Shown: positions 10,435 through 29,997 of the stretch, piece after piece
Layout: each line of letters starts with the position of its first letter
Position numbering within the stretch: position 1 is the first letter of the stretch
Source: Lanius collurio
Lineage: Eukaryota > Chordata > Aves > Passeriformes > Laniidae
NCBI GenBank assembly: GCA_020086605.1
Contig: JACBWW010000052.1
Span: forward strand, 1,111,456-1,175,455
Length of the DNA: 64,000 nucleotides
Reading direction: 5' to 3'
Position numbers and translations under genes: made by a program
The notes under the pieces: generated by a model
The model's input: only the letters and a program-made list of their open reading frames with translations
Database searches by the model: none
What the model was told of the DNA's origin: nothing

Positions 10435-10441
10435 ACTAGGG
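10435..10441 (+). repeat. 5' target-site duplication of element 1
   Basis: ACTAGGG directly precedes the 5' LTR and recurs directly after the 3' LTR at 12910-12916. Six or seven bases fit the 6-bp duplications made by betaretroviral (ERVK-type) integrases. The match shows that the two LTRs and everything between them entered as one unit. Confidence 0.75.
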
Positions 10442-10730
10442 TGTGGAGGTGCCTTCCCCTGAAATCCTGGGGGGAGGGACCCTGCAGGGTATGGGTTTGT
10501 CCCTGTCCCTGCTCCCATGTCACGTGTGCCCCATACCTGTTCCTAATTGGTTGGTTTTGGGTGCCCAGGCCAGTGAAAGAGGGAGGGTCCTGTGACTAGA
10601 GCCCGCCTGGGAACTCCAGCCATGCGGGTGGAGGAATAAATCATCTCTGAACATCTAAAGAAATATCGCTTCATCTTTCCTTCCAAGTCCATTGCTGTCT
10701 TATACATGTAAGGATTCCCCTCATTGAACA
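10442..10730 (+). mobile_element. 5' LTR of element 1
   Basis: It begins TGTGGAGG and ends about ATTGAACA, just before the primer site. It carries an inverted CCAAT motif (ATTGG, twice near 10545-10553) and AATAAA at 10635-10640. I see no clear TATA box. It matches the 3' LTR at 12617 along its whole length. Confidence 0.85.
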
Positions 10731-10732
10731 AA

Positions 10733-10750
10733 TGGTGGCGAAATGCTGGC
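10733..10750 (+). promoter_or_regulatory. Primer-binding site, tRNA-Phe-like
   Basis: TGGTGGCGAAATGCTGGC starts two bases after the LTR. By my count it matches 13 of 18 positions of the usual tRNA-Phe primer site, including the first five bases and a CGAAA core. The mismatches fit age-related decay. Confidence 0.5.
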
Positions 10751-10831
10751 AAACAATCCCTGGAGAAGATAATTTGTGAGTAACTCTGGATATCTCTTCT
10801 TGCTTTCGTTTTGCTGTCCCATTTCTGAATG

Positions 10832-11295
10832 ATGGAGGACTCATGGAAGGACTCATGGCTGTCTGAATCACAAAGAGACATTTACCTTAAACTAAAAAAG
10901 GTTCTGGAACAGCAGTATATATAGATTTTAGCTTAATTCAAGCTCAGAAAGAACTAAGACACTTTTTGTCATGGCTGTTTAAAAACTTCTTCTATGTTTC
11001 TTGGAAGTTGATTCTTACCAAGGACTTTTGGAAGAATGTTTGGACACAGTTAATTTCCGAATCAAAAAATATGCCGATGCAAGACTATTTCCGTGAATAT
11101 TACCTGATTTCAGAGACTGCTGAGCAATATCGGCTTTGTCCTGCTACTGTATCAGCAGCGAACACGTGTTCGAGCAGTGTGTGCGCGTTGCAATGGGCTC
11201 CCCTGTCACCCTGGAGACCACGCGGGCCCTGCCGCGGGCACGCAGTGCACTGCAGGCGGCAGCAAGGGAGCTCCCACGCATGGGAGAGCCAGTGA
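10832..11295 (+). pseudogene. Broken gag matrix (MA) domain of element 1
   Basis: This is the remnant of a betaretroviral-type matrix protein, which in an intact virus binds the inner membrane and starts particle assembly. The first part reads from ATG 10832 to a TAG at 10922. The second part continues in another frame from about 10942 (AQKELRHFLSWLFKN...) to TGA at 11293-11295. The helix with LFKNFF and the KDFWKNVW motif align well with the matrix of element 2 (LFKHFP, RDFWDKVG). At least one frameshift and several stops make it non-functional as it stands. The second part is in the same frame (frame 1) as the cold-shock ORF downstream. I saw no N-terminal myristoylation start like the MG of element 2. 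Confidence 0.65.
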
Positions 11296-11474
11296 GACCA
11301 GGCACAGCGAGAGCAGAGCTGGCGGGGAGAGCGGAGGAGGTGGGAGTGGAGCCAGAAGTGACACGGCAGTGAGGGCCCAGCGGTGTTCGCCCTGAGGCAG
11401 TGGTGAGGGCGGTGGCCGCCCCGCACCCCTTGGCGAGCGACGTTTCAAGCCAAGAAAGGCAGTGGCAATTGCGG

Positions 11475-11492
11475 CAGTTGCTATGGCAACTG
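11475..11492. promoter_or_regulatory. Palindrome resembling an RFX X-box
   Basis: CAGTTGC TATG GCAACTG has perfect 7-bp arms. The core GTTGCTATGGCAAC is one base from the symmetrical X-box bound by RFX proteins. Any function here is inference. Confidence 0.35.
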
Positions 11493-11570
11493 CGGTGAGC
11501 CACGCTGAGCAGAGCCGGAGTGGCGTGGGGGCAAGAAGGAAACCGTGCTAGCCGATGGCCACACAGCCAA

Positions 11571-11591
11571 CAGCAGCAGCAGCAGCAGCAG
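11571..11591. repeat. (CAG)7 trinucleotide run
   Basis: Seven perfect CAG units follow one CAA. It would read as glutamine or alanine depending on frame, and it creates the spurious cysteine-rich minus-strand frame here. Confidence 0.9.
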
Positions 11592-11790
11592 CGGTGGCAG
11601 TACAAAGCTGCAGACATACGAACACCTTACAGGGCACGGCCGTGCATCCACATGAACGCCCAGAAATCATGGAGCAGTCACATGGAGCTCCAGAGGAGAA
11701 GCGAGCACAGCTCCAAGCGGCGGTACAGAGGTGGCCAAAGGCGGAGCAGCCGGCAGTGGCAGTGTGCAGCAGCATGGCCAGATCGGACCC

Positions 11791-12339
11791 ATGTGGCCCC
11801 ACACCCGAGGAGTAAAGACCCTGTGTCAGGAACATGCTGGCAGCCCTGTCCCCGGTGGTCCCAGCAGTGGCAGCTCCGGTGCGAGAGCGAGAAAAGCTGA
11901 AAGTGAAAGCAAGTACAAAAGAACTCGGAAAAATGAAAAGTTTATTGCAGCTAGGGTTTTTGGAACTGTAAAATGGTATAATGTAAAGAAAAATGACGGT
12001 TTCTTATTGAAAAGTGATAATGGAGAAAGTATTTTTGTTCATGAATATGCTATTGTGAAAAATAACCCCAAAAGCGATGTTCCAAGCTTAGAAGAAGGAG
12101 AAAGAGTAGAATTTAAAATTGTGCAAGGAAAGAAGGGCCCACAGGCCGCCTGTGTTACAGGCCCTGGGGTTGTCCCTGTGAAAGGTAGTAGATATACTGG
12201 ACAATGTCCTCATAATCCCTATCCTTTCCCTATCCCACCTTTCCCTTTTATCCCATGTCCCTTTACCCCCCATATATGCCCAGCCCAAATTTCCCTTTCT
12301 GGTACCCCTCACAAAACCAGGGTTTTCCATTTGCCATGA
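11791..12339 (+). CDS. Retrovirus-borne Y-box-type cold-shock domain protein
   Basis: The frame is open from 11656 to the TGA at 12337-12339. The only in-frame ATG is 11791 (weak context), giving 182 residues; an upstream start or a gag fusion is possible. Residues about 51-120 (11941-12150) form a cold-shock domain, an RNA/ssDNA-binding OB fold. The features are GTVKWYNV (Trp62), KNDGFL at the RNP1 position, SIFVH at RNP2 (Phe82, His84), VEFKIVQG and the VTGPG end block. Long insert loops and the TGPG..PV ending point to the eukaryotic Y-box (YBX) group rather than Lin28 or bacterial Csp. From memory about half the domain is identical to YBX1. RNP1 has Asp where YBX has Tyr, but the main aromatic contacts are kept. 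Basic residues precede the domain and a Pro/Phe-rich tail follows. It is intronless, as expected for an mRNA capture. It may be a relic rather than an expressed gene. Confidence 0.75.
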   Translation: MWPHTRGVKTLCQEHAGSPVPGGPSSGSSGARARKAESESKYKRTRKNEKFIAARVFGTVKWYNVKKNDGFLLKSDNGESIFVHEYAIVKNNPKSDVPSLEEGERVEFKIVQGKKGPQAACVTGPGVVPVKGSRYTGQCPHNPYPFPIPPFPFIPCPFTPHICPAQISLSGTPHKTRVFHLP

Positions 12340-12464
12340 ATCCCTCTGCAATGCCGATGGGGGGGCATGAAAAGGAGGGAGGGAAGAAATTACCTGTAAT
12401 TTTCTTAAGATTCCAACAGGTACAGAAAGGAAAAAAATCCTCTCCTGACTCAGTTTCCATCTGA
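12240..12464 (+). pseudogene. Frame-shifted continuation of the Pro/aromatic-rich tail
   Basis: The cold-shock ORF reads Pro/Phe-rich (PYPFPIPPFPF) until about 12250. After that the same kind of sequence continues in frame 0 (12255-12464) as tyrosine-, proline- and methionine-rich protein (YPPYMPSPNFPFWYP), while frame 1 loses that character and stops. A one-base indel near 12240-12260 is the simplest reading, so the ancestral protein was probably about 40 residues longer. The remainder to 12616 is AT-rich and holds no other gene I can support. Confidence 0.45.
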
Positions 12465-12602
12465 AGCGTGCTCAAGTCCTGCCTCCCTTCTGATGCTCCA
12501 AAGAAAATCATTTGGACATTTGGGGACTCATGATAGTGGCTTCCTTTCTTTGGAAATTGTTTTGTTTTTTATCCAACTGTTTCCAATGTTATTTTATTTA
12601 AT

Positions 12603-12611
12603 AAGAAAGGG
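12603..12611 (+). other. Putative polypurine tract of element 1
   Basis: AAGAAAGGG lies five bases before the 3' LTR, about where plus-strand priming occurs in retroviruses. It is short and somewhat displaced, so the call is weak. Confidence 0.4.
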
Positions 12612-12616
12612 TGAAC

Positions 12617-12909
12617 TGTGGAGGTGCCTTCCCCTGGAATCCTGGGGGGAGGGACCCTGCAGGGTACAGGTCTGTCCCTGTCCCTGCTCCCATGTCACGT
12701 GTGCCCCATACCTGTTCTTGATTGGTTGGTTTTGGGTGCCCAGGCCCGGGAAGAGAGCAGGGTCCCATGACTGGGGTCTGCCTGGGAACTCCAGCCATGC
12801 GAGTGGAGGAGTAAATCATCTCTGAACATCTATAAAAATATCACTTCATATTTCCTTCCAACGTTCATTGCTGTCTTATAGATGTTGTAAGGATTCCCCT
12901 CATTGCAAT
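12617..12909 (+). mobile_element. 3' LTR of element 1
   Basis: It begins TGTGGAGG and aligns over its full length with the 5' LTR, with roughly 28-30 substitutions and a 3-bp indel by eye. The polyadenylation signal of the 5' copy (AATAAA) is AGTAAA here. ACTAGGG of the target duplication follows at 12910. Confidence 0.85.
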
Positions 12910-12916
12910 ACTAGGG

Positions 12917-14780: not shown

Positions 14781-16514
14781 ATGGGCGCGAAACTGACCCA
14801 CATCCAGCAAGACGCTTATATCCAAATCAAATCAGCCCTTCTTTACAGAAATTACTGCTTTTCAAGGGCAGAGCTGAAGCATTTCTTTCACTGGCTGTTT
14901 AAACACTTCCCTTACCTTTTGCAAGACTCACTCCTTTCTAGAGACTTTTGGGACAAAGTTGGATGCTCTACAGTCTAAAAATGACTTATCAGCAGAAACA
15001 ATTCTTAAATGCGTTAAAGACATTGAGTGTTCGGGAAGCTTTATCCCCACTTTAAAAATCCCCTCACTGTGTTCCTCTCCCCATGTCCCCGACCCCCTTT
15101 CCCTGCCTTGGATGGGATTGAGGGACGGATCTCGCCCAGGGGAGATGGATCCTGCCATTTCCCCTTCCCGGGGCGGCACCGGCCATGCTGTCCCCGGCTC
15201 TCCCCCCAGTCCCCCGCCTGTGCCCACTTCCTCAGCTGTGCCCCAACATGGCGTCAGCCACGCGGCCCCGGCTATTTCGCCGTCCCGCGGTCCCCCTCCG
15301 CTCCCTCCTGTACACGTCATCACGCACGACGCGTCCCCCATCCCCGCCGCCACTCCTCTGGCTGTGGGCACAGGCCCGCATCCCCCGCACCCCCACTCCG
15401 CTGCCTTCTCGGTTTCTCCCACAAACTCTGCTCCTGTAGTTTCTGCTTTAAATCCCACCGCTGCCAGCCTGGCTCTGGCAGTGCCGGCATCCAAAACCTG
15501 TCACACTTTTCCCCCTGCTGTGCAGCTCCAGGCTGCCACGGCTCGCCCTAGAGAACATCCCTCCTCCTTTTCAGAGGGTGACAGCAGCACCGCGGAGTCT
15601 GAGTCAGAGCCCGATGATAGATGGGCAGAAACACGAAGACAAGCTGCCCTGAATGGAGATTGCGAATTGGCCCAAAAGATTTCAGCCTTCCCAGTCGTTT
15701 TAACAAAACGGAGTGGGGAGAAATGCACAACAGAAAAAAGATGGGAGCCAATTCCCTACAGAGAAATTAAAGAGCTTTGCAAGGTCGCGAAGGAACATGG
15801 GCGGGTGTCACCCTACTTTAAAAATCTGCTTCAAGTCACTCTCTCCACTCTCACCCTAGTGCCCCATGACATTAAAACATTATGTCATGTCTCCTTTCTT
15901 CCAAGGAACATATGCTGTGGGAAATGATACGGAAAAGCCAATTGAGGCAGCTTCTACAAACATATCAAAGAGACCGCACTAGGGCTCATGTGACAGCAGA
16001 GTATCTGAGTGGAGAAGGTGACTTTGAGCACCCCCAAGACCAGGCCAAATTCATACCCGAGGCTGTCCTAGGACACATCAAAAGGGTAGCAGAGGCAGCG
16101 CTGCTCCAGGTCCCAGATGATGCTACTCCCACCTTAAACTTTTCCAATGTTAGACAAGGCACAGAAGAGTCTTTTGTTAACTTTGTTGATCGTCTAAAGA
16201 GTTCTATTGAGAGGCAAATTGATAATGCAAAAGCCCAAAAAGAGATTTTACATAGTTTGGCAATGACAAACTCAGAGTGCAAGAAAATCTTAAGGGCCCT
16301 GCCTCTCGATCCTTTGCCTGCAATAGACCAAATGATCAAAGCCTGTGCCAAACTAACATCCACTGAACACGTGATAGCAACAGCAGTCTCAAGAGGGGTG
16401 GCTGAAGCCTTAGTGGTATCATTAAAGGATAAGCAGAAGTGTTTTAACTGTAGAAAACCTGGACATTTTATGAAAGACTGCCCAAAACACCATGTAGCCA
16501 AAGACTCTCATTGA
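14781..16514 (+). pseudogene. Betaretrovirus-like gag with two frameshifts (element 2)
   Basis: Gag builds the virus particle. The ATG at 14781 opens with MGAKLT, so Gly2 could be myristoylated as in other matrix proteins. The matrix domain reads to TAA 14976-14978 in frame 0, with LFKHFP and RDFWDKVG shared with element 1. Reading moves to frame 1 near 14950-14965: a Pro/Ser/His-rich spacer (about 15020-15560), an acidic SESEPDD patch and the capsid start (IPYREIKELC at 15751-15780). It returns to frame 0 near 15880-15910 for the capsid C-terminal half, with the major homology region at about 16155-16215 (QGTEESFVNFVDRL). One CCHC zinc knuckle lies at 16440-16481 (CFNCRKPGHFMKDC), then TGA at 16512-16514. 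The two shifts are opposite and restore the frame. Betaretroviral gag usually has two knuckles; the second is at best a vestige after the stop. Confidence 0.85.
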
Positions 16515-17171
16515 CCTGTAGGGTGCCCACGCCAACACCAGCAGCATTCAAAAATCATCCAGCAGAGTACGGGATGGCCCTGTGCTACACATTTTTGGGA
16601 GCAGTGTTTGCCTCAGCCCACGCAAGAGAGAAGGCCAAAGATACCATCTGACACTTCCTCCTGGCATTTGCCACCCTGGGCATCCCTGCAGGCCCGAGGT
16701 AGCTTCCAGAAAAGAACATCAAACCCTACACCAGCCCAGCAAACACTGCCCCCGTGGACACAACCTCACCAGAAACCAACAAAGAACAACCTAAAGACCA
16801 AAGAAATGCAGCCCAGAGACAGTGCAGATTTCCATTACAGACATCGACCTGCCATCCTGTCACCAGAATTTCAACCAGGACATCGACCTGATAACCCATT
16901 GTGGTGCCTCCTTAAGTCTTTCCCAAATTGCCTTCATTATTGCAGTCCCTACCCCGTTCATCCCCCTGTTGCTTTCCCACCAGCTAATGCTCCCTACCTC
17001 CACCCCTTTGTGTTGCCCTTCCTGCCGCTGCACTCCCCGATACCCCTTTTGGGATGCTTCCTGATGCATTGCACTCCTGTTTTATTCACTCCCCATTTCC
17101 CCTTCCTCAGCCACATAAACTCATACCCTGTCACCTCACTACCACCCCCTCTACCCCAAGCTTTTAACTAA
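16515..17171 (+). pseudogene. Proline-rich extension of the gag frame after TGA
   Basis: Beyond the TGA the same frame stays open for about 218 codons to 17171. A Cys/His patch (CATHFWEQC) near the beginning may be a vestige of the second zinc knuckle. Later residues are rich in Pro, Leu, Phe and His (CSPYPVHPPVAFPP, PLPQAFN at the end). No protease or dUTPase motif is visible. The TGA could be a decayed CGA (CpG to TpG) or a real gag end with the open frame maintained by composition. I do not recognise a function. Confidence 0.45.
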
Positions 17172-17650: not shown

Positions 17651-18000
17651 TGCAGAGGCCGGTGGGCCTGCTGAGAAAGCTTCCCCAGAATGATCTGTTC
17701 TGTTACGCTAATGTTCCCCAGTTCTGCTCCCCTGGTTGGCTCCGTTGGTGGCCACAACCCCTGTTACTTGATACACCCTGGAAGTCGCTTCATCAGTTCC
17801 TTTACCCCTCATTGTTCTCCCCGAGAGACTTCCCTGAACCCTTGCACAGACACATTAAATCTCTCCTGTAGAACCCTGTGCAAAGACTCTTGCTGCTCAT
17901 TTCATCGTCGGACTGTTTTAGCCAGCTGTCTGGTCTGTGTGTGCAAGCTGCCAGCACCGGGCGGCTTCGTCCTGGAGACGCTTTCAGGAAGGTCGGTACA
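17651..18000 (+). mobile_element. 3' LTR of element 2
   Basis: This 350-bp segment begins TGCAGAGG and ends GGTCGGTACA, with canonical TG...CA ends. It has a probable ATTAAA polyadenylation signal at 17854-17859. It shows no visible similarity to the element 1 LTRs. The short open frames inside it are not genes. Confidence 0.7.
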
Positions 18001-18234
18001 TGGAACCAGCTAAGGAGAAAATGACAGCATATAGTCTCAGTTGCACCTTAATTTGAGCAGAGGCATTTCTAATAACTTTAACAACCAGACCATTACAAGA
18101 ATTTTGACCAACAACTCAAAAATTGTTCATTATCCATTAAAATATGTCACTAGAAAATATGGATACAACCAAGGCTCTGAACATTTTATAAGTGATTAAA
18201 ATCAAATAAATTCTTAAAATATTATCTGGGTAGT

Positions 18235-18412
18235 AGCTTAAAACATTCTTCTGAGGCAAGAAAAAATCTAAAATATGCTACCAAGAAGGAATAAATATGG
18301 ATTTTTTTGGTACAAAAGGGGCCTCATCTAAATTGCAAATGTTGTATATTCTCTTCTGAGCAGAGACATTTATGGTTAGCTTACCTACAACTAACCATAA
18401 TGGATCTTGGAT
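18235..18412 (+). repeat. Direct repeat, copy A (178 bp)
   Basis: It starts AGCTTAAAACATTCTTC and ends TAATGGATCTTGGAT. It matches copy B at 19040-19215 at roughly 95 percent by eye (8 substitutions and a 2-bp indel). It has no coding potential and is not a repeat family I recognise. Confidence 0.9.
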
Positions 18413-19039: not shown

Positions 19040-19215
19040 AGCTTAAAACATTCTTCCTAGGCAAGAAGAAATCTAAAATATGCTACCAAGAAGGAATAAA
19101 TATGGATTTTTGGTACAAAATGGGCCTCACCTAAATTGCAAATGTTGTATATTCTCTTCTGAGCAGAGACATTTATAGTAAGCTTACCTACAACTGACCA
19201 TAATGGATCTTGGAT
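19040..19215 (+). repeat. Direct repeat, copy B (176 bp)
   Basis: The second copy of the 18235-18412 sequence, in the same orientation and 805 bp downstream start to start. The flanks of the two copies differ immediately outside the shared ends. Confidence 0.9.
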
Positions 19216-29697: not shown

Positions 29698-29703
29698 AGC
29701 AGC

Positions 29704-29997
29704 TGTGGAGGTGCCTTCCTCTGAAATCCCCAGGGTAGGGACCCTGCAGGTTATGGGTCTGCCTCTATCCCTGTCCCCATGCCAGGTGTGCCCCATACCT
29801 GTTCCTGATTGGGTGGTGTGGGTGCCTGGGAGCCTGGGAAGAGAGCAGGGTCCCATGACTGGGAGTCGGCCTGGGAACTCCAGCCATGTGGCTGGAGGAA
29901 TAAAATAATCCCTGAACATCTACAGAAATATCGCTTCATCTTTCCTTCCAAGTCCATCGCTGTCTTATATGTTGTTGTAAGGATTCCCCACACTACA
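29704..29997 (+). mobile_element. Solo LTR of the element 1 family
   Basis: It begins TGTGGAGG and follows the element 1 LTRs along their whole length, including the AATAAA signal (29899-29904) and the CGCTTCATCTTTCCTTCCAA block. No internal sequence is attached, so it arose by LTR-LTR recombination or as a partial insertion. AGCAGC precedes it (29698-29703) and AGCAAC follows (30001-30006), a 5 of 6 target-duplication match. Confidence 0.85.

What the first reader, a model, noticed from the sequence alone, without database searches (positions are those of the whole stretch)
11656..12464. Endogenous retrovirus carrying a captured Y-box cold-shock domain
Between paired LTRs with a matching target duplication sits an intronless frame encoding a clear eukaryotic cold-shock domain (GTVKWYNV, SIFVH, VTGPG). 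Retroviral capture of cellular genes is established, as in acute transforming viruses, but I know of no described element carrying a Y-box domain. A virus-borne RNA-binding domain could have packaged RNA, controlled translation or stabilised the transcript, or it could be a passenger. In vertebrate YBX genes the domain spans several exons, so the uninterrupted copy implies capture from mRNA.
Basis: partly seen in the sequence, partly recalled or inferred. Interest (0 to 1): 0.88.

Follow-up and report, generated by a model that had tools for sequence, protein, structure and literature searches.

The report
Retroelements carrying a captured cold-shock domain
An unnamed, bird-sized genome holds at least 150 copies of an RNA-binding "cold-shock" domain resembling the cell's own Y-box proteins, sitting in nearly every copy examined inside a short retrovirus-like element; the mutation pattern indicates that natural selection kept the domain intact while the elements were spreading, and it likely served to bind the element's own RNA.

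Summary
The element (10442-12910) has an LTR pair, a 6-bp target duplication, a Gag matrix (MA)-like start, a linker, a Y-box-type cold-shock domain (CSD; Pfam 5.8e-18; best PDB match YBX1, 4e-27) and a proline-rich tail. It is no processed pseudogene: all 150 scored genome places match the CSD at E<=2.1e-42, and 28 of 30 loci found through MA DNA carry it (window included). Older relatives (D, E) repeat the layout. Variants shared among copies are mostly synonymous (S:N 14:9), private ones are not (24:106; p=6.5e-5, true frame only); dN/dS between lineages is about 0.2-0.3, one pair 0.65. So the CSD was selected, not a passenger. Four of 80 loci read hold MA-linker-CSD-tail in one frame of 505-518 codons. 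I infer a Gag-like adaptor that binds the element's RNA where nucleocapsid would stand and rides in a helper betaretrovirus; untested. Many LTRs carry the Y-box CTGATTGG. Seven searches of the held open-access library found no such element. Cellular YBX exons and a helper could not be searched (server busy).

The parts
10436..10441 (.). left target-site duplication CTAGGG
   Evidence: identical to 12911-12916
10442..10730 (+). 5' LTR (TGTGGAGG...GAACA)
   Evidence: 90% identical to the 3' LTR over 10442-10726; end placed by comparison with other copies
10733..10741 (+). primer-binding-site-like 9-mer TGGTGGCGA (TGGTGGAGA in 51 of 76 distinct copies scanned)
   Evidence: sequence; tally (23 of 76 not found by the pattern, 2 other variants)
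10829..11150 (+). MA-like Gag N-terminus, broken in this copy by frame change and stops (ATG at 10829/10832)
   Evidence: tblastx 45% over 33 aa, E=1.3e-7, to the gag at 14781-14975; homologous segments in other copies
11151..11895 (+). GC-rich linker; in the four uninterrupted copies it codes 259-272 aa rich in G, A and R, charge +15 to +26
11656..12339 (+). open frame holding the CSD (227 codons plus stop)
11941..12201 (+). Y-box-type cold-shock domain
12202..12462 (+). proline/phenylalanine/tyrosine-rich tail, split over two frames in this copy
   Evidence: tail composition in four copies
12463..12616 (+). untranslated stretch ending in polypurine-tract-like AAGAAAGGGTG before the 3' LTR
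   Evidence: stretch found beside the LTR in the copies, AAAGGGTGAAT-like end seen
12617..12910 (+). 3' LTR; carries a one-mismatch Y-box motif (CTGATTGG) about 101 bases in
12911..12916 (.). right target-site duplication CTAGGG
29703..29989 (+). LTR of the same family without an internal part in the window (solo LTR)
   Evidence: 85% identical

Best explanation
This is one decayed copy of a large group of short (about 2.4 kb) LTR retroelements whose conserved coding part is a Y-box-type cold-shock domain joined behind a Gag matrix-like segment, and the domain likely bound the element's own RNA so that a helper betaretrovirus would package it. SHOWN: the layout LTR-MA-linker-CSD-tail-LTR recurs in three CSD lineages (A/B/C, D, E); four of 80 loci read carry MA-linker-CSD-tail in one uninterrupted frame (505-518 codons), a basic protein (pI about 10) with a G/A/R-rich linker; the CSD shows purifying selection in variants shared among copies and none in private ones; seven of eight residues named in the literature as RNA contacts are the usual residue in the copies. 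INFERRED: the CSD was taken once from a cellular YBX mRNA; the MA part targets the protein to a helper's Gag assembly site; linker plus CSD takes the place of capsid-nucleocapsid as RNA-binding part, giving the parasite preferential packaging or RNA protection. A Y-box motif in the LTR may add self-regulation.
For: Multicopy: 150 of 150 scored places at E<=2.1e-42, from 1341 first-look candidates; MA-DNA search 706 candidates, 40 scored, 30 loci read, 28 with CSD, window included. One frame: 4 of 80 loci read (L008, L021, L026, L050; four of the 80 are held twice) have an uninterrupted frame from MA to tail, ending at a TAA. Selection: in 27 MA-selected copies variants shared by >=3 copies are S:N 14:9, private 24:106, p=6.5e-5; without CpG columns 8:3 vs 17:86, p=2e-4; shifted frames p 0.74 and 0.97, untranslated stretch p 0.21-0.83. 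D plus E set of 22: 25:18 vs 24:79, p=6.8e-5, true frame only. Between lineages dN/dS 0.26-0.29 (D vs A/B/C) and 0.18-0.28 (L094 and L102 vs D and A/B/C). RNA contacts listed in PMC9928419 (passages) over 77 projected rows: K64 77, W65 72, Y72 68, F74 77, F85 75, H87 77, K118 75; E121 is Q in 75. CSD charge +7/+8 against +2 in YBX1. Nine derived residues shared by D and A/B/C but absent from YBX1 and YBX2. Old layout: L106 and L107 are elements with their own LTR pairs (88.7%, 85.2%) yet 74% alike. Six-bp duplications: 11 of 31 LTR pairs with >=5 of 6 matching, plus the window copy by eye. Plausibility: a betaretrovirus, MMTV, assembles with YB-1, whose knockdown lowers particle output (PMC4486188, abstract and passages, citing Bann 2014, which is not held); YB-1 depletion lowers HIV-1 virion output (PMC6040738, abstract).
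Against: No RNA binding, packaging or expression was measured. No helper was identified: the capsid-family search (PF00607) did not complete. The MA part has no Pfam match and only chance PDB hits; its label rests on similarity to a neighbouring gag. Selection on MA is not seen in the MA-selected set (p=0.34) and weak when pooled (p=0.029, with four loci counted twice); the tail gives p=0.10 and 0.29. No subfamily-A copy read has an uninterrupted MA-CSD frame, so in A the CSD might be expressed alone, and I saw no start codon just ahead of it in the window. The window copy has lost Y72 and its MA frame. The L094-L102 pair gives dN/dS 0.65, and one shifted frame of that pair is lower (0.38) than the true one. 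The 85-column tree leaves many forks open, D itself has support 81/83, and independent captures are not excluded by it. The D set was chosen by protein similarity.
Confidence: 0.5

Rival explanations
1. The CSD protein works after transcription but outside packaging: it coats the element's RNA in the cytoplasm, stabilising it or timing its translation as cellular YB-1 does, and the MA part is a relic.
For: Selection is clear on the CSD but weak or unseen on MA and tail; subfamily A keeps a selected CSD although no A copy read has an open MA-CSD frame; RNA-contact residues are mostly kept.
Against: MA stays in phase with the CSD in four uninterrupted copies of subfamily B, and MA-like segments persist in subfamily C and in lineage E.
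Confidence: 0.22
2. The CSD protein is a transcription activator of its own LTR, binding the Y-box CTGATTGG that many LTRs carry.
For: Exact CTGATTGG in 82 of 125 LTR stretches, at least 80 of these on the + strand, within one mismatch in 118 of 125; shuffled expectation 0.9%; also exact in one of two LTRs of D-family L083.
Against: The LTRs share descent, so counts are not independent; inverted CCAAT boxes are common in retroviral promoters and usually bound by NF-Y (recalled); none of the four E-lineage LTRs tested has an exact match and one is within a mismatch; MA fusion is not expected for a nuclear factor.
Confidence: 0.15
3. Passenger: a captured cDNA carried along without function.
For: Capture of cellular sequence by retroviruses is established (recalled); few copies keep a whole frame (4 of 80).
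Against: Shared variants are synonymous-biased in the true frame only; dN/dS about 0.2-0.3 between lineages, one pair 0.65; retention in elements only 74% alike.
Confidence: 0.04
4. Processed YBX pseudogene inserted into an older provirus.
For: Intronless, domain-length YBX-like sequence.
Against: The CSD recurs at the same place between MA, linker, tail and LTR in 28 of 30 MA-selected loci; the target duplication lies outside the LTRs; no poly(A) run beside the CSD in the window sequence.
Confidence: 0.01

Closest known systems
Vertebrate Y-box proteins (YBX1, YBX2; PDB 6lms, 7f3i)
   Same: Cold-shock domain with the Y-box-specific C-terminal extension; RNA-contact residues mostly kept.
   Different: 34 of 85 CSD positions differ from YBX1 in the commonest residue of the copies; no basic/acidic C-terminal domain; joined to an MA-like segment and a P/F/Y-rich tail between LTRs.
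Acute transforming retroviruses (gag-cellular gene fusions; recalled)
   Same: Captured cellular coding sequence joined behind a partial gag, no pol or env in the element, presumed helper dependence.
   Different: Those are usually young, single viral isolates with growth-promoting genes; here the domain was kept through a radiation of endogenous families and is an RNA-binding domain.
Non-autonomous gag-only LTR elements (plant TR-GAG type; recalled)
   Same: Short LTR element with only a Gag-like frame, spread by partners.
   Different: Capsid and nucleocapsid are missing and a host-type RNA-binding domain stands in their place.
Mouse mammary tumour virus and cellular YB-1 (PMC4486188)
   Same: Betaretroviral Gag, viral RNA and a Y-box protein act together in assembly.
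   Different: MMTV borrows the cell's protein; this group carries its own CSD.
Neighbouring endogenous gag at window 14781-16514
   Same: Related MA segment (45% over 33 aa).
   Different: Continues into capsid and a CCHC zinc knuckle instead of a CSD.

Membership tests
Y-box cold-shock domain | CSD family above Pfam gathering score | tested here: met
   PF00313 65 bits against cut-off 27
Y-box cold-shock domain | closer to YBX than to bacterial Csp or LIN28, with the VTGPG..PV.GS.Y extension | tested here: met
   98.6 bits to YBX1, best bacterial Csp 49.4, best LIN28 29.1
Full Y-box protein (YBX gene) | alternating basic/acidic C-terminal domain after the CSD (recalled) | tested here: not met
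   65-aa tail rich in P, F and Y or S in the four open copies
Full Y-box protein (YBX gene) | CSD split over several exons (recalled; cellular gene not located here) | tested here: not met
   CSD uninterrupted in the window; CSD core without stop in 41 of 50 CSD-selected and 20 of 27 MA-selected copies, frame-changing gaps in 1 of 50 and 9 of 27
LTR retroelement / endogenous retrovirus | paired LTRs, PBS-like site, PPT-like site and target duplication | tested here: met
Class II (betaretrovirus-like) ERV | 6-bp target duplication | tested here: met
   11 of 31 pairs with at least 5 of 6 bases; all 11 among the 19 subfamily-A rows, the 12 subfamily-B rows were not properly delimited; window copy 6 of 6 by eye
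Class II (betaretrovirus-like) ERV | reverse transcriptase of the betaretrovirus clade | not tested
   no pol seen in the element; the helper search did not complete (for example)
Gag matrix domain | recognised MA family or fold | tested here: inconclusive
   no Pfam match, only chance PDB hits; tblastx E 1.3e-7 to a gag followed by capsid
Gag-cellular gene fusion (acute transforming type) | captured sequence in one frame behind partial gag | tested here: met
   4 of 80 loci read with one frame; in the window copy the second MA piece and the CSD are in the same phase but interrupted
Gag-cellular gene fusion (acute transforming type) | mobilised by a replication-competent helper | not tested
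   inferred from absence of pol and env
Processed pseudogene | own poly(A) tail and own target duplication | tested here: not met
   CSD at the same place in 28 of 30 MA-selected loci; duplication lies outside the LTRs

The most novel reading that the evidence does not exclude
A lineage of retroelement parasites replaced the viral nucleocapsid by a cold-shock domain taken from a host Y-box gene, kept it under selection through a radiation of at least three element lineages, and may close a loop: the encoded Y-box domain recognises its own RNA for packaging and the Y-box in its own LTR.
Probability: 0.3. Interest if true: 0.92.

Novelty: new variant of a known kind. Interest (0 to 1): 0.8.

Why it matters
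Retroviruses are known to borrow YB-1 from the cell; an element group that carries its own diverged Y-box domain would show that a host RNA-binding module can take over a structural role in a retroelement and be kept by selection through several lineages. It gives a natural set of many diverged CSDs for asking which residues RNA binding really needs, and makes the question of how non-autonomous elements get their RNA packaged directly testable.

Tried and rejected
Processed pseudogene and passenger: rejected. The 1893-aa open frame at C20 is an N gap. The hit in a viral contig (L001) reads as a short stand-alone Csp; its neighbours were not annotated. The search of 5.8 billion proteins gave no match at E<=0.001 from 196 candidates. 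Single-sequence AlphaFold of the CSD gave pLDDT 49 and was not used. MA profile against PDB gave only hits at E 1.5 or worse. Some linker stops look like CpG decay by eye, not counted. Literature: six searches pairing cold-shock or Y-box terms with retroelement terms and a general one on non-autonomous passerine elements (79); 2, 0, 0, 9, 0, 9 and 0 papers were listed and judged by title and start of abstract only. led to PMC4992247 on chicken repeats, whose passages contain no 'cold shock' or 'Y-box'. The library holds open-licence papers only.

Limits of the counts: the CSD-selected sets are ranked by protein similarity and so biased to conserved copies; the MA-selected set is the main test and includes the window's own copy. 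In the pooled rows four loci are counted twice (L002=L052, L013=L071, L017=L075, L040=L059); one search repeats the test on 73 distinct rows (S:N 31:28 vs 25:117, p=1.1e-6). Three of the 80 loci did not pass the projection filter. L085 was dropped as a near-duplicate of L084, and the 22 rows there include two of lineage E. Subfamily labels A/B/C follow LTR and MA hits.

Full report
Observation. The window holds an LTR element at 10442-12910. The LTRs match over 10442-10726 and 12617-12905 at 90%, with an exact 6-bp duplication CTAGGG outside them. Inside lies an open frame 11656-12336 with a cold-shock domain at 11941-12201 (Pfam CSD 5.8e-18). Its best solved relatives are YBX1 and YBX2 (best E 4.3e-27 and 3.2e-26), ahead of the best bacterial Csp (4.7e-12) and LIN28 (7.6e-6), and the match runs through the Y-box extension. 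The window copy is itself broken: the MA-like part has stops and a frame change, and the tail is split over two frames.

The domain travels with the element. A protein search of the window's own genome (1.097 Gb, 2132 contigs) scored 150 of 1341 candidates, and all 150 match at E<=2.1e-42, 79-89% identical apart from the window itself. Of the 50 loci read from that list (30, 20; window included), 49 have the family's LTR downstream; the other, L051, runs into an N gap. A second search used only DNA of the MA region: 706 candidates, 40 scored, 30 loci read, 28 with the CSD downstream, window included (L064 and L072 lack it in the held DNA).

Subfamilies and older relatives. By LTR and MA the 76 rows that could be labelled (four loci twice) fall into A (50), B (14, LTR diverged), C (11, no DNA match in the MA part) and one unclear. 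C has a different but alignable MA version; different MA and LTR versions with a similar 3' half suggest recombination. A query with the YBX1 CSD (62 aa) then showed an older group: the first 28 of 150 rows are 66-73% identical to YBX1. Three of these were read in full (L083-L085; L084 and L085 are 97.8% identical to each other): same layout, LTRs of L083 about 68% like the window's, MA patch matched at DNA level in L083 only. Twenty more CSD pieces were read; two of them, L094 and L102, form a further lineage E (support 99/96), while D has 81/83 and A/B/C 100/100. Their full loci L106 and L107 are elements of about 2.47 and 2.41 kb with LTR pairs 88.7% and 85.2% alike, but 74% like each other. 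D and A/B/C share nine derived CSD residues absent from YBX1 and YBX2, which favours one capture; the 85-column tree alone does not prove it.

Selection. In 27 MA-selected copies, variants found in one copy only are S:N 24:106 (N/S 4.4 against a neutral expectation of 2.6), so they show no synonymous excess; variants shared by at least three copies are 14:9 (p=6.5e-5; 2e-4 without CpG columns; p 6e-4 and 3e-4 at thresholds of two and four copies). In the same set the two shifted frames give p 0.74 and 0.97, the untranslated stretch 0.21-0.83, MA 0.34 and the tail 0.10; pooled with the CSD-selected set MA gives 0.029 and the tail 0.29. The D plus E set of 22, chosen by protein similarity, repeats it: 25:18 against 24:79, p=6.8e-5, in the true frame only. 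Between lineages dN/dS is 0.26-0.29 for D against A/B/C, with 1.34 and 1.45 in the shifted frames of L083, and 0.18-0.28 for L094 and L102 against D and A/B/C; the L094-L102 pair gives 0.65, with 1.51 and 0.38 in its shifted frames. Overall the CSD was maintained as protein in the spreading lineages and decays after insertion; the L094-L102 pair adds nothing to that.

The protein. Four of 80 loci read (L008, L021, L026, L050, all subfamily B) have one uninterrupted frame from the MA start through linker, CSD and tail to a TAA, 505-518 codons; three have a methionine at the expected start and one has lost it. I describe them only; none is singled out. The linker (259-272 aa) is G/A/R-rich with charge +15 to +26, the CSD carries +7 to +8 against +2 for YBX1, and the whole has pI 9.8-10.1. 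Of eight residues named as RNA contacts in PMC9928419 (passages), seven are the usual residue in 77 projected rows and E121 is Q; PMC8464072 (passages) reports W65, F85 and H87 among the conserved residues that respond to single-stranded DNA. The MA part has no Pfam match and only chance PDB hits; its label rests on similarity to the neighbouring gag, which continues into capsid and a zinc knuckle. MMTV, a betaretrovirus, assembles with YB-1 (PMC4486188 abstract and passages); YB-1 also supports HIV-1 (PMC6040738 abstract).

Mechanism. I commit to an RNA-binding Gag-like adaptor that let a pol-less element use a helper's particles, with the CSD and basic linker in the place of nucleocapsid. 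Layout, frame and selection are shown; RNA binding, packaging, the helper and the single mRNA capture are inferred. The strongest points for the rival of RNA stability or translation are the weak selection on MA and the lack of open MA-CSD frames in subfamily A. The LTR Y-box (82 of 125 stretches exact, 118 within one mismatch, shuffled 0.9%; the stretches share descent) makes self-activation a real third option; that this motif is the Y-box, and that NF-Y often binds it, is recalled.

Other anchors. Target duplications: 11 of 31 LTR pairs with at least 5 of 6 bases (where the window's own end was misplaced); LTR-LTR K80 median 0.087, range 0.043-0.143 in that call. The 9-mer TGGTGGAGA follows the 5' LTR in 51 of 76 copies scanned, not found by the pattern in 23, and also in L107; it resembles the complement of a tRNA-Ala 3' end (recalled).

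Novelty. Six searches of the held open-access full texts pairing cold-shock or Y-box terms with retroelement terms and a general one (79) listed no paper that by title or start of abstract describes such an element. I rate it a new variant of a known kind: gene capture and gag-only elements are known, but not, to my knowledge, a selected host RNA-binding domain defining a radiation of retroelements.

Noticed in passing
window 14781-16514: Second endogenous retrovirus piece: MA-like start, linker, capsid (Gag_p24, Gag_p24_C) and CCHC zinc knuckle in neighbouring frames; open frames just downstream (16515-17168, 17675-18010) have no Pfam match.
   Followed up: partly
window 18235-18412 and 19040-19215: Direct repeat of about 178 bases, 94% alike, downstream of that gag; nature unknown.
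   Followed up: no
LTRs of the element family: Exact Y-box CTGATTGG in 82 of 125 LTR stretches, often about 100 bases in; the namesake site of Y-box proteins (recalled).
   Followed up: partly
L084 and L085: Two D-family loci on different contigs are 97.8% identical over 3.2 kb including flanks: segmental duplication or unmerged haplotypes.
   Followed up: no
L005, L011, L012, L018, L022, L024, L028, L029, L030, L035, L042: Subfamily C joins the same 3' half and LTR type to an MA part without DNA match to the window's; the C copies with an open MA frame that were aligned show a clearly different MA version, suggesting recombination.
   Followed up: partly
L001 (IMGVR_UViG_3300046697_000245): A viral contig encodes a short stand-alone cold-shock protein, 44% like the query, with the same VQGKKGPQA run; looks like an ordinary bacterial-type Csp, neighbours not looked at.
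   Followed up: no
window 10733-10741 and 5' LTR ends of other copies: Conserved TGGTGGAGA primer-binding-like 9-mer (51 of 76 copies), possibly tRNA-Ala (recalled), present in L107 of lineage E as well.
   Followed up: partly
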